In this document: piece by piece, positions 22,374-26,344 of the stretch
Position numbering within the stretch: the stretch's first letter is position 1
Layout of the letters: each line of letters begins with the position of its first letter
Assembly (NCBI RefSeq): GCF_003667345.1
Contig: NZ_RCWF01000002.1
Coordinates: forward strand, 372,001 to 436,000
Length of the DNA stretch: 64,000 bases
Source: Poseidonibacter antarcticus
GTDB taxonomy: Bacteria; Campylobacterota; Campylobacteria; Campylobacterales; Arcobacteraceae
Direction: 5' to 3'
The notes under the pieces: generated by a model
Databases searched by the model: none
Told to the model about the DNA's origin: nothing
What the model saw: the letters and a program-made list of their open reading frames with translations, nothing else
Translations under genes and position numbers: made by a program

Positions 22374-23135
22374 ATGAAAATCACAGATTTAGAAAAATAT
22401 AATATATTTGATAATGAAAAACTAGAAAAGTTAGAGAAACTCGAAAATCAAGGTGTTTGTAACATTATTTATAAATTAGATACTTCAAAAAAGCAGTATC
22501 TAATTAGAGTATTTAAAATTACTCATCAAGATAAAAAAAGTAGACATCACGAGTTTGAAATTCAAAAAAAAGCATATAAAATTGGAATTGCTGCAAAACC
22601 ATATATTTTAGATGAAGAAAACTCTTTAATGATATGTGATTTTTTAGAAGGCAAACATAAAAGTAAATTAAAGAAAAATAAACTAAATGCCCTAGTAGAT
22701 TCTATGAAAAAACTTCATAAAATAAAAGTAAATAAAAAAACTTATAAACTAAAAAAAGATTTTGAAAATTTTAAAAAGATTTTGAAAGATAAAAAATCTC
22801 AAAAATTAATTAGAAATTCATTTAAAGAGTTGAAAAAATTAGAAAAGTACAAGTTTGAAGCTGTAAATACTCACCATGATTTAAATATTAACAATGTTTT
22901 ATTTTATAAAAATAAAGCTAGATTTATTGATTGGGAATTTGCACGTGTAAATGATAGATTTTTTGATATTGCTAATATTTGTTTTGAATTTAAATTAAGT
23001 AAAAAACAAGAAAAACAAGTTTTAAAAAGATATTTTAAAAAGCTTAAAAATAAAGATATTAAAAAACTAGCTTCTTATAAAAAAGTTTATGAAAACCTAT
23101 GGATTTTATGGTTTGCAAGTCAAAATATAAACTAA
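22374..23135 (+). CDS. Choline/aminoglycoside kinase-like phosphotransferase
   Basis: A 253-residue soluble protein of the APH/choline kinase fold. The catalytic loop reads T-H-H-D-L-N-I-N-N-V-L (about residues 164-174; Asp is the base and Asn binds magnesium), and the metal Asp is in F-I-D-W-E-F-A (about 182-188). The N-terminal lobe has the ATP-binding Lys-like region Y-L-I-R-V-F-K. It most resembles choline/ethanolamine or thiamine kinase-like proteins used for cell-surface decoration or salvage. Its 3' end overlaps the convergent SRAP gene by four bases. Confidence 0.8.
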   Translation: MKITDLEKYNIFDNEKLEKLEKLENQGVCNIIYKLDTSKKQYLIRVFKITHQDKKSRHHEFEIQKKAYKIGIAAKPYILDEENSLMICDFLEGKHKSKLKKNKLNALVDSMKKLHKIKVNKKTYKLKKDFENFKKILKDKKSQKLIRNSFKELKKLEKYKFEAVNTHHDLNINNVLFYKNKARFIDWEFARVNDRFFDIANICFEFKLSKKQEKQVLKRYFKKLKNKDIKKLASYKKVYENLWILWFASQNIN

Positions 23136-23842
23136 AAAAGAGATAACTGCCCTACTTCTTTTATCTCTTCATCTTTTTTATCTATTTTAATCACCTCATC
23201 AATACATGAAGGTTCATTAAATAATACTTTATTTACTTCACTTGTAACTTCATACATTTTTATTTTTTCATTTGGATATACAGAAAAGAGCTTTATTACT
23301 TCTCTTAAATCTGAAGAATTTAACCAAGTGCTAAAATCTTTTTTTTCTAAGACTACAGGCATTCGATGATGTATTTTCCCAAGTTTTTCATTTGCATCAC
23401 AAGTAATCAAAGCAACTGTAACTATTTTCATATTAAGTTCAGTATCAAAATACTCATCCCAAATACCTGCTAAGGCTAAATATTCATTTTTTATATCACT
23501 TACTAAATATGGAGTTTTTTCTTTATCCTCTTTTGCCCACTCATAAAAACCATTTATTGGAATAATACATCTTCTGTATTTAAAAGAATCTCTAAAAGTT
23601 TTCTTTTCATAAATACTTTCACTACGTGCATTTATATTCATAGAAGCCTTTGAAAACGCCCAAGAAGGCAAGTATCCAAAATGTGTATATAAATAGTTCC
23701 CATTGTTTAAAAGCGCAGGAATAGGAATAGTTGGAGGAATATTATATCTAGGATTTAACTCCCCTACCATATCATTTTTGATTAACTCTTTTGCATCAAT
23801 TTTAAAGGCTTTGTCATTGTATATACTTAATCTTCCTGGCAT
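23132..23842 (-). CDS. SRAP (YedK/HMCES-type) protein with Pro2 instead of Cys2
   Basis: A 236-residue SOS-response-associated peptidase family protein. SRAP proteins sense single-stranded DNA and crosslink to abasic sites through Cys2, exposed after Met removal. Conserved elements are present: N-P-R-Y-N-I-P-P-T (30-38), the N-A-R-S-E Asn71, Glu101 in G-F-Y-E-W, and His158 in I-H-H-R-M-P-V. The start, however, reads M-P-G-R-L where the family has M-C-G-R. All three codon bases differ from either Cys codon, so a single sequencing error cannot explain it. The gene begins three bases after the ccdB stop and is part of a ccdA-ccdB-SRAP operon. No better start is visible. Confidence 0.9.
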   Translation of the reverse strand: MPGRLSIYNDKAFKIDAKELIKNDMVGELNPRYNIPPTIPIPALLNNGNYLYTHFGYLPSWAFSKASMNINARSESIYEKKTFRDSFKYRRCIIPINGFYEWAKEDKEKTPYLVSDIKNEYLALAGIWDEYFDTELNMKIVTVALITCDANEKLGKIHHRMPVVLEKKDFSTWLNSSDLREVIKLFSVYPNEKIKMYEVTSEVNKVLFNEPSCIDEVIKIDKKDEEIKEVGQLSLF

Positions 23843-23845
23843 TTG

Positions 23846-24151
23846 TTAAAATCCATAAATTAAAAAATCAATCGAGTTTTTAATCTCATCGCCTTGCTCT
23901 TTTATAGAACATATTTTTTCATTTAATAATGAAAGTCCAATAGTAGCCATTTGATCAGTATATAAATAAACTATTTCATCTTTTATTTTTAACTCTTTTG
24001 TAAGTTTATCAACTTTTGCTAAAGAAAAAACCAAAGGAATAACAACACGTGTATCTAAAGAAGATAAAATATCGTTTTGTATATCTAATAAATATGGAAC
24101 TTCTTTATTAGTTCTTTCATTTTCATTTTTATAAACATCAAATTGAGCCAT
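23846..24151 (-). CDS. ccdB: CcdB-family gyrase toxin
   Basis: A 101-residue protein, the exact length of F-plasmid CcdB, with matching landmarks: Q-F-D-V-Y near the start, L-D-I-Q-N-D-I-L, R-V-V-I-P-L, and E-I-K-N-S-I-D near the end. CcdB poisons DNA gyrase. The last three residues, which in F CcdB are Trp-Gly-Ile and contact gyrase, are Tyr-Gly-Phe here. The ATG overlaps the antitoxin stop by one base, and the SRAP gene follows after three bases. Confidence 0.88.
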   Translation of the reverse strand: MAQFDVYKNENERTNKEVPYLLDIQNDILSSLDTRVVIPLVFSLAKVDKLTKELKIKDEIVYLYTDQMATIGLSLLNEKICSIKEQGDEIKNSIDFLIYGF

Positions 24152-24393
24152 TAAAATATCCTATGTTCTTCTAAAATAATTCCATGTTCTTTTAATCTTT
24201 TATTATGATTTTTAATTGCATCTTTATTCTCTTCTTGCCATTTTTTTATTTTCTCTTCTTTTGAATTTAAGTTTAAATAAGAGTTTAAAGCTTCTCTAAC
24301 AATTTGACTCTTTTTTTTACCCAAAGAAATAGCCATAGAATCCAACTCATCAAGTAAAGTATCCTCTAAAGTAATCGTCATTTTTCTAGTCAT
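24151..24393 (-). CDS. ccdA: CcdA-like ribbon-helix-helix antitoxin
   Basis: A 79-residue protein. A ribbon-helix-helix DNA-binding domain (M-T-I-T-L-E-D-T-L-L-D-E-L, about residues 5-45) is followed by a disordered toxin-binding tail with the CcdA-like W-Q-E-E-N...N...G-I...E-H-R-I-F pattern. A longer frame begins at 24435, but ATG 24393 is preceded by a proper AAAGGA site six bases upstream and gives the normal antitoxin length, so I chose it. It should repress its own operon and neutralise CcdB. The stop overlaps the ccdB start. Confidence 0.87.
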   Translation of the reverse strand: MTRKMTITLEDTLLDELDSMAISLGKKKSQIVREALNSYLNLNSKEEKIKKWQEENKDAIKNHNKRLKEHGIILEEHRIF

Positions 24394-24493
24394 AAAAATC
24401 CTTTGCCATATTTTACCATACTTTTTATTTAACATAATAAAACAGTTTAAATCATCTTTACAAGTAAAAGCTTAATTTCGCTAAAATGCCCCA

Positions 24494-26344
24494 ATGCAAT
24501 TAGAAGAAAAACTCAAACAATTACCAAATGATGCTGGTGTATATCAATACTTTGATAAAGATGGCAAATTACTATATATTGGAAAAGCTAAGGTACTGAA
24601 AAATAGGGTTAAATCTTATTTTAAATTTACTCCAAAATTATTACCAGCTGATAAATTAGGTCCTAGAATTTACAAGATGATAAGTGAAGCATTTAGTATT
24701 GAGTGGATTGTCGTACCAAATGAACATGATGCTTTGATTTTAGAAAATTCTCTTATAAAACAACTAAAACCAAAATACAATATTTTACTTCGAGATGATA
24801 AAACATATCCATATATTTATATTGATTACTCTGAACTTTATCCACGACTTGAGATTACACGAAAAGTATATAAAAATAAAAATATCAAATACTTTGGTCC
24901 CTACTCTACTGGTTCAAGAGATATGCTTGATAGTATTTATGAAATAGTTCCTCTAGTTCAAAAAAAATCTTGTATCAAAGGCAAGCAAGCTTGTCTTTTC
25001 CATCAAATAAAAAGATGTCATGCACCTTGTGAGGGTAAAATATCAACAGGTGATTACGCAAAGATAGTTGAAACTGCTATTGATTATATCTATAATAAAT
25101 CAAAGCTAATATCAAAACTTCAAGAAAAAATGATGGAGTATTCAGAAGACTTTAGATTTGAAGAGGCTATGAAATTAAGAGATAGAATAAAAACTATAGA
25201 AAAATCTCAAATAAAATCTGGAATGGATTTAGCTACAAATGAAAACCTAGATGTATTTGCAATAAAAGCTGCAAAACAAAAAGCGGTAATCGTTCGTATG
25301 TTTATACGAGATGGAAAATTAACATCATCTTCTTATGATTTTATAAAAGTAAATTTTTTAGAAGATGAAACAAATATTGATTTGGATGAAGCATATAAAA
25401 GAGCAATTGTAAACTACTATGACAATGAAATTCCTGTACTTCCAAAAGAAGTTTTAACAGCTATTGAAATAGAAGACAAAGAGAGTATTGAAGAGTTTTT
25501 ATATACAAAATTTGAGAAAAAAATCAAACTTGTAAATCCAAAAATAGACAAGAAAAAGAATTTAGTTCAAGTTGCACTTAATAACTGTGATGAACTTCTT
25601 AGAATTGATTCTTCAAGAAATCAAAATACTATTTATAAAGAGCTTCAAAAGCTATTTAATCTTCAAATACTACCTTTAAGAGTAGAATCGTTTGATAACT
25701 CACATATGATGGGACAAGCAACTGTAGGTGCTATGGTTGTATGGAATGAAGAAATAAATGCTTTTGATAAAAAAGACTTTAGACATTATAATCTTGAATC
25801 AAAAGATGAATACTCACAAATGAGAGAAATGCTTATGAGAAGAGTTGATAGCTTTGAGAAAAATCCAGCACCTGATCTTTGGATTTTAGATGGTGGGTCA
25901 ACTCTTTTAAAATTAGCCTACGATATTATTAATTCAACTGGTGTAAATCTTGATATTATTGCAATTGCAAAAGAAAAAGTAGATGCTAAAGCACATAGAG
26001 CAAAAGGTGCAGCAAAAGATATTGTTCACTATAAAGATGAAAAAGGTGAATATAGAGCTTTAAAGCTTGAAACTAGTGATCAAAGATTACAGTTTGTTCA
26101 AAGACAAAGAGATGAAGCTCATAGATTTGTAATAAATTTTCATAAAAAACAAAAAAGAAAAGAAGATAAGCAAATTTCATTATTACAAATCAAAGGAATT
26201 GGGGAAGCGAAGGTTAAAAAACTTCTTTTATATTTTGGAGAATTTGAAAAAATTAGAAATGCAAGTTTTGAAGATTTAAAAGACGTACTAAATGAAAAAG
26301 ATGCGACTTTAATATCTGATTATTTTAAAGAAAATTTACATTAA
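24494..26344 (+). CDS. uvrC: UvrABC system protein C (excinuclease subunit)
   Basis: A 616-residue nuclease that makes both incisions in nucleotide-excision repair with UvrB. The domains in order are GIY-YIG (about residues 12-95; G-V-Y-Q-Y-F and Y-I-G-K-A), a Cys cluster (C-I-K-G-K-Q-A-C-L-F-H...C-H-A-P-C), UVR (about 195-230), the RNase H-like endonuclease (about 375-530; V-E-S-F-D-N-S-H, I-L-D-G-G and the Y-K-D/K-L-E region), and C-terminal helix-hairpin-helix repeats. It is divergent from the ccdA-ccdB-SRAP operon, so three DNA-damage or gyrase-related functions lie together. Confidence 0.97.
   Translation: MQLEEKLKQLPNDAGVYQYFDKDGKLLYIGKAKVLKNRVKSYFKFTPKLLPADKLGPRIYKMISEAFSIEWIVVPNEHDALILENSLIKQLKPKYNILLRDDKTYPYIYIDYSELYPRLEITRKVYKNKNIKYFGPYSTGSRDMLDSIYEIVPLVQKKSCIKGKQACLFHQIKRCHAPCEGKISTGDYAKIVETAIDYIYNKSKLISKLQEKMMEYSEDFRFEEAMKLRDRIKTIEKSQIKSGMDLATNENLDVFAIKAAKQKAVIVRMFIRDGKLTSSSYDFIKVNFLEDETNIDLDEAYKRAIVNYYDNEIPVLPKEVLTAIEIEDKESIEEFLYTKFEKKIKLVNPKIDKKKNLVQVALNNCDELLRIDSSRNQNTIYKELQKLFNLQILPLRVESFDNSHMMGQATVGAMVVWNEEINAFDKKDFRHYNLESKDEYSQMREMLMRRVDSFEKNPAPDLWILDGGSTLLKLAYDIINSTGVNLDIIAIAKEKVDAKAHRAKGAAKDIVHYKDEKGEYRALKLETSDQRLQFVQRQRDEAHRFVINFHKKQKRKEDKQISLLQIKGIGEAKVKKLLLYFGEFEKIRNASFEDLKDVLNEKDATLISDYFKENLH

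What the first reader, a model, noticed from the sequence alone, without database searches (positions are those of the whole stretch)
23132..24393. SRAP protein with Pro2 in place of Cys2, encoded in a ccdA-ccdB operon
Seen: the SRAP gene starts M-P-G-R instead of M-C-G-R, yet keeps Asn71, Glu101 and His158. It starts three bases after ccdB, which overlaps ccdA. Known: HMCES/YedK crosslink abasic DNA through Cys2 using thiol and alpha-amino groups. Fpg/Nei enzymes use an N-terminal Pro2 as a Schiff-base nucleophile at abasic sites. Inference: this variant may form an iminium at abasic sites through a secondary amine, giving a reversible crosslink or lyase activity, and may be tied to gyrase-poison damage from CcdB. 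Known families describe SRAP and CcdAB separately; I know of no described link between them.
Basis: partly seen in the sequence, partly recalled or inferred. Interest (0 to 1): 0.78.

Follow-up and report, generated by a model that had tools for sequence, protein, structure and literature searches.

The report
SRAP repair protein with catalytic proline
A family of marine bacteria carries a version of a well-known DNA-damage protein in which the supposedly invariant reactive cysteine is replaced by proline while the rest of the active site is kept, so it probably grips damaged DNA in a transient or cutting way instead of locking onto it.

Summary
The SRAP gene (23132-23842, -) starts Met-Pro-Gly-Arg, keeps Asn71, Glu101 and His158, and follows ccdB by 3 nt; no other start is possible. 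Pro2 is fixed across the whole Arcobacteraceae SRAP clade: all 29 intact genes plus one fragment, against 0 of 151 SRAPs elsewhere (148 Cys). It is one clade nested among Cys2 proteins and under purifying selection. The published account calls this Cys "absolutely conserved".

The ccdAB link is not supported. The conserved neighbour is divergent uvrC. A ccdAB module with its own upstream element sits between uvrC and SRAP in 3 of 30 genomes, all of one genus. CcdB and SRAP do not co-occur (p = 0.78).

Best explanation: a clamp-tethered SRAP whose N-terminal Pro forms an iminium at abasic sites. It cannot close a thiazolidine, so it acts as an AP lyase or reversible cap, as YedK C2A does in vitro. 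The chemistry is inferred, not shown. This is a new variant of a known kind.

The parts
23132..23842 (-). SRAP-domain gene, Pro2 form, 236 aa
   Evidence: PF02586 E 1e-53; only SRAP in the genome
23837..23839 (-). codon 2, CCA = Pro2, in place of Cys2
   Evidence: Pro in 29/29 Arcobacteraceae homologues with an N-terminus, plus fragment G096
23630..23632 (-). Asn71 (YedK Asn75 position)
   Evidence: 28/28 in the clade
23540..23542 (-). Glu101 (YedK Glu105 position), predicted general acid/base
   Evidence: 28/28 in the clade
23369..23371 (-). His158 (YedK His160 position), predicted ring-opening acid
   Evidence: 27/27; one further homologue (L029) has an internal deletion here
23135..23149 (-). 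C-terminal QLSLF, matching the canonical beta-clamp-binding motif, on a tail predicted disordered
23846..24151 (-). ccdB-type toxin gene
   Evidence: PF01845 E 3.6e-27; module inserted between uvrC and SRAP in 3 of 30 genomes
24151..24393 (-). ccdA-type antitoxin gene (start at MTRKMTI; longest ORF reaches 24435)
   Evidence: PF07362 E 1.4e-10, RHH_1 E 6.2e-7; start inferred from conservation in G096
24394..24426 (-). element upstream of ccdA, AAAAAGTATGGTAAAATATGGCAAAGGATTTTT, closely similar in the other two genomes with ccdAB and absent where ccdAB is absent; probable promoter/operator
24494..26344 (+). uvrC (excinuclease subunit C), conserved divergent neighbour of SRAP
   Evidence: SRAP-uvrC divergent pair, about 90 bp apart where ccdAB is absent
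22374..23135 (+). APH-fold kinase gene, convergent neighbour overlapping the SRAP 3' end by 4 nt

Best explanation
A chromosomal DNA-damage protein of Arcobacteraceae: an SRAP (YedK/HMCES family) protein in which N-terminal Cys has been replaced once, ancestrally, by Pro. After Met1 is removed, the secondary amine of Pro2 attacks the ring-opened aldehyde of an abasic site, helped by Glu101 and His158 as in YedK, and forms an iminium. Without a thiol no thiazolidine can close, so the product either hydrolyses back (a transient cap) or beta-eliminates (AP lyase), instead of giving a stable DNA-protein crosslink. The C-terminal QLSLF motif would tether the protein to the beta sliding clamp, placing it at replication forks. 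ccdAB is a local insertion that in a few species puts SRAP behind the ccdA promoter; it is not part of the mechanism. Shown here: sequence, predicted fold, clade-wide fixation, conserved active site, conserved motif, gene order. Inferred: Met removal, iminium formation, lyase or cap activity, clamp binding.
For: Pro2 in 29/29 versus 0/141 plus 0/10 more non-Arcobacteraceae SRAPs; one clade, SH-aLRT 99, with a Cys2 sister from another Campylobacterota family. Asn71, Arg73, Glu75, Glu101, Trp102, His158, Arg160 and Arg4 are kept, whereas the only other non-Cys2 SRAPs met (Ile2/Met2, 3 sequences) have lost Glu101 and His158: loss of function takes those residues too, and the Pro2 clade does not look like that. 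dN/dS 0.07-0.17; codon 2 varies synonymously only. AF2 model pLDDT 89.6; its residue 1 (Pro2) aligns with residue 2 of HMCES, YedK and the YedK C2A Schiff-base complex 8D2M (Z 25.6, 2.4 A, 210 aligned). YedK C2A forms a borohydride-trappable Schiff base and has AP lyase activity depending on Glu105 (PMC9436759). QLSLF-type C-terminus in 28/30 versus 10/142 (p 1e-21; sequences are not independent), matching the published consensus QL[S/D]LF (PMC12309361), on a tail with pLDDT < 50.
Against: No biochemistry. Proline is bulkier and a secondary amine; the YedK work covers Ala and Ser, not Pro. An AP lyase on fork ssDNA would break the template, so selection for it is not obvious. Nth, an AP lyase, is present in 103 of 104 genomes, so SRAP is not needed as the only one. 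74 of 104 family genomes lack SRAP altogether. Clamp binding is a motif match only.
Confidence: 0.6

Rival explanations
1. Reversible shield: Pro2 forms an iminium at AP sites but the active site suppresses beta-elimination, so the protein protects AP-ssDNA for a short time and lets go, avoiding the need to degrade a stable crosslink.
For: Same sequence evidence as the best explanation. The clamp motif suggests action at forks, where cutting would be harmful. YedK C2A Schiff-base formation is much faster (rate constant 1.7) than its lyase step (0.05; PMC9436759).
Against: YedK without the thiol does cleave, so suppression would need extra features. Asn69 and Leu5 are clade-specific candidates but untested.
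Confidence: 0.35
2. Non-covalent AP-site or ssDNA/junction binder: catalytic chemistry is lost with Cys2 and the other residues are kept for binding.
For: Asn, Arg and Trp residues of the site are conserved; HMCES and YedK structures include non-covalent DNA complexes (6oea, 6nuh).
Against: Glu101 and His158 are conserved in every member without a deletion there, while in other non-Cys2 SRAPs they are lost. Pro, with a reactive N-terminal amine, is fixed in place of an arbitrary residue.
Confidence: 0.2
3. The protein works with CcdAB, answering gyrase-poison damage.
For: In the window and two congeneric genomes ccdA-ccdB-SRAP are contiguous and probably co-transcribed.
Against: 27 of 30 SRAP genomes lack the adjacency; CcdB occurs in 6 of 30 SRAP-positive and 13 of 74 SRAP-negative genomes, p = 0.78. 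The module carries its own upstream element and splits the conserved uvrC-SRAP pair.
Confidence: 0.04

Closest known systems
E. coli YedK (SRAP)
   Same: Fold (Z about 25, 2.4 A over 210 residues); Asn/Glu/His active site; residue 2 at the reaction centre
   Different: Pro2 instead of Cys2, so no thiazolidine; C-terminal QLSLF; found in genomes where no LexA was detected
Human HMCES SRAP domain
   Same: Fold (Z 26), active-site residues; a C-terminal tail with a possible replication-clamp motif parallels the PIP box reported for HMCES (own knowledge)
   Different: Pro2; bacterial clamp motif instead of a PIP box; about 29% identity
YedK C2A engineered mutant (PDB 8D2M)
   Same: No thiol at residue 2; N-terminal amine as nucleophile; the laboratory counterpart of this natural state
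   Different: Primary amine of Ala in the mutant, secondary amine of Pro here
Fpg/Nei (H2TH) glycosylases/AP lyases
   Same: N-terminal Pro2 as Schiff-base nucleophile (Zharkov 1997, cited in PMC9436759); analogous only
   Different: Unrelated fold; no Fpg/Nei in any of 104 Arcobacteraceae genomes
CcdAB toxin-antitoxin
   Same: The two upstream genes are ordinary ccdA and ccdB homologues
   Different: Local insertion, not part of the SRAP system

Membership tests
SRAP family (PF02586) | SRAP domain over its full length | tested here: met
   E 1e-53, 1-214/214; all significant fold matches are SRAP structures
SRAP family (PF02586) | Cys as second residue ('absolutely conserved', PMC3765255) | tested here: not met
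   Pro2 in the window and all relatives of the clade with an N-terminus; kept in the family on homology and fold, as a variant
SRAP family (PF02586) | conserved Asn, Glu and His of the active site | tested here: met
YedK/HMCES thiazolidine crosslinkers | thiol plus alpha-amine on residue 2, stable thiazolidine crosslink | tested here: not met
   no thiol at residue 2; no clade-specific replacement Cys except Cys148, which also occurs in 10 other SRAPs and is not invariant; crosslink itself not assayed
AP lyase acting through an N-terminal amine | borohydride-trappable Schiff base and beta-elimination | not testable with these tools
   needs purified protein
Fpg/Nei | Fapy_DNA_glyco domain | tested here: not met
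   only SRAP is hit in the protein; no PF01149 in 104 genomes
Sliding-clamp binders | QL[S/D]LF or QxxLF motif in an accessible segment | tested here: met
Sliding-clamp binders | physical binding to DnaN | not testable with these tools
   needs a binding assay
LexA-regulated SOS genes | LexA in the genome | tested here: not met
   no LexA_DNA_bind match over cut-off in 104 genomes
CcdAB operon member | conserved linkage to ccdAB | tested here: not met
   3 of 30 genomes; p = 0.78 for co-occurrence

The most novel reading that the evidence does not exclude
Arcobacteraceae evolved a natural SRAP enzyme that uses an N-terminal proline iminium at abasic sites: the suicide crosslinker became a turnover enzyme (AP lyase or reversible cap) that rides on the sliding clamp. 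It would be a second, independent origin of N-terminal-proline AP-site chemistry besides Fpg/Nei, in a lineage without Fpg/Nei.
Probability: 0.5. Interest if true: 0.75.

Novelty: new variant of a known kind. Interest (0 to 1): 0.58.

Why it matters
The reactive Cys2 is taken as the defining residue of SRAP proteins, including human HMCES. A whole clade that replaced it with Pro while keeping the rest of the active site is a natural experiment on why the stable thiazolidine crosslink is needed, and whether SRAP can work by transient or cleaving chemistry. A clamp motif on bacterial SRAPs would also explain how they reach forks, paralleling HMCES and PCNA. Both points are testable with one purified protein and a peptide.

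Tried and rejected
(1) Alternative start restoring Cys2: excluded by the in-frame stop one codon upstream and by the same start across species. (2) ccdAB linkage: rejected. (3) Replacement thiol elsewhere: Cys92 is general to SRAPs, Cys148 and Cys213 are not specific. (4) Viral source of Pro2: two pattern scans of viral contigs for MPGR...NAR gave 104 and 69 stretches; no SRAP was recognised among the loci fetched, and viral SRAPs found by homology are Cys2. (5) Pro2 SRAP as replacement for a missing lyase: Nth is present throughout, so at most a specialised role. (6) Other QLxLF C-termini in the own genome: the pattern gave 88 DNA matches, mostly chance; of the 30 loci fetched, only SRAP and a Cas2-like ORF were ORF ends of 70 aa or more. 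(8) No paper linking Arcobacter to SRAP in the library.

Full report
What is in the sequence. The SRAP gene lies at 23132-23842 on the minus strand and encodes 236 residues beginning MPGRLSIY. Pfam assigns it to SRAP over the whole domain, E 1e-53, and it is the only SRAP in the 2.92 Mb genome. It starts 3 nt after the ccdB stop; ccdB overlaps ccdA by one base. The codon before ATG is CAA and before that comes the in-frame ccdB stop, so no start can restore Cys2. The genome belongs to Campylobacterota; its nearest named relatives are Poseidonibacter.

Pro2 is a clade property. Of 104 genomes of the family, 30 have SRAP. All 29 with a complete N-terminus read M/V/L-P-G-R, from ATG, GTG or TTG starts; the N-terminal fragment from the thirtieth, G096, also reads MPGR. 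Codon 2 is CCT in 16, CCA in 10 and CCC in 3: it drifts synonymously but always codes for Pro. Outside the family I read residue 2 in 141 SRAPs from other Campylobacterota, Bacteroidota and relatives, Actinomycetota, plasmids, phages and viral contigs: 138 Cys, 2 Ile, 1 Met, no Pro. Ten more from Pseudomonadota, Bacillota, haloarchaea and a phage are all Cys. The Pro2 proteins form one clade (SH-aLRT 99) inside the Cys2 tree; the nearest relative, L051 of another Campylobacterota family, is Cys2. So one Cys-to-Pro change is the simplest history. Published work describes this Cys as absolutely conserved and always second (PMC3765255).

The active site is otherwise kept. Arg4, Asn71, Arg73, Glu75, Glu101 and Trp102 are 28/28 in the clade and His158 27/27; one protein, L029, lost the His segment in an internal deletion. 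By contrast the three Ile2/Met2 proteins found outside have also lost Glu101 and His158, as expected of decayed sites. dN/dS between close pairs is 0.07-0.17. Two positions appear to have changed together with residue 2, Leu5 and Asn69, and are nearly or entirely absent elsewhere; Phe55 is also present in Cys2 L051, so it came earlier. These are candidates for fitting Pro into the site.

Structure. AlphaFold2 on the mature form (starting at Pro2; the alignment row lacks Met) gives pLDDT 89.6 and pTM 0.86, with only the last 16 residues below 50. All significant PDB matches are SRAPs. In the VIA alignments the model's first residue, Pro2, falls on residue 2 of BT_1218, HMCES, YedK and the Schiff-base complex of YedK C2A, 8D2M (Z 25.6, rmsd 2.4 A, 210 aligned). 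Atom-level geometry was not available to me.

Mechanism. [quoted passage not shown] Without the thiol (C2A, C2S) YedK makes no stable crosslink, gives a borohydride-trappable Schiff base and cleaves AP-DNA (PMC9436759). Fpg uses an N-terminal Pro for its AP-lyase step (Zharkov 1997, cited there). Met-Pro N-termini are normally processed by methionine aminopeptidase (own knowledge). The Pro2 SRAP therefore has every part needed for iminium chemistry except the one that makes it irreversible. Whether it then cleaves or lets go cannot be told from sequence. Arcobacteraceae have no Fpg/Nei (0 of 104) but Nth is in 103 of 104, so the protein is not their only AP lyase. No LexA was detected, so the SOS label does not apply here.

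The protein ends in QLSLF. In 28 of 30 Arcobacteraceae SRAPs the last residues fit Q..LF or Q..FF, in the other two SLFDL; among 142 others 10 fit a loose Q..L[FL], including one Bacteroidia protein ending GQLSLF. The Fisher p of 1e-21 overstates the case because relatives are not independent, but the motif survives at the end of a tail whose other residues and length vary. QL[S/D]LF is the published clamp-binding consensus, and QLSLF is the C-terminal motif of PolC (PMC12309361). This parallels the PIP box reported for HMCES (own knowledge, not found in the held papers).

Gene neighbourhood. The conserved neighbour is uvrC, divergent, about 90 bp away in congeners without ccdAB and close by in several other genera. 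A ccdA-ccdB module sits between uvrC and SRAP in the window, G096 and G099 only. In all three it carries a closely similar element just upstream of ccdA that congeners without ccdAB lack, while the uvrC-proximal part looks shared. CcdB is in 6 of 30 SRAP-positive and 13 of 74 SRAP-negative genomes, p = 0.78; in G036, G084 and G091 it lies far from SRAP. So ccdAB is a local arrival that probably changed SRAP expression in a few species.

Limits. The sampling of residue 2 outside Campylobacterota is wide but not exhaustive: about 70 SRAPs from the phylum search around G458, about 50 from Actinomycetota, and few from Pseudomonadota and Bacillota, where YedK-like proteins are common. No experiment was run; iminium formation, lyase or cap activity and clamp binding remain predictions.

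Noticed in passing
L328, L332 (MIERY...) and L048 (FMERY...): Bacteroidota and Rhodothermota SRAP paralogues with Ile/Met at position 2 that also lack the catalytic Glu and His: likely SRAP pseudo-enzymes.
   Followed up: partly
L045, L191, L318, L341, L347 and others: C-terminal Q..LF motifs recur in scattered Cys2 SRAPs of Bacteroidota and Actinomycetota, suggesting that clamp tethering of bacterial SRAPs may be more general.
   Followed up: partly
L409 (G000:C2, around 278242): A Cas2-like ORF in the same genome ends in KQLLLF, a clamp-motif-like C-terminus.
   Followed up: no
L029 (G084:C1:810010-810471): SRAP with an in-frame internal deletion that removes the IHHRMP segment including His158; Pro2 and Glu101 are kept.
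   Followed up: no
window 24394-24426: Element upstream of ccdA with the spaced repeat TATGG-TAAAA-TATGG, conserved in all three genomes with the module; likely autoregulatory site of a ribbon-helix-helix antitoxin.
   Followed up: partly
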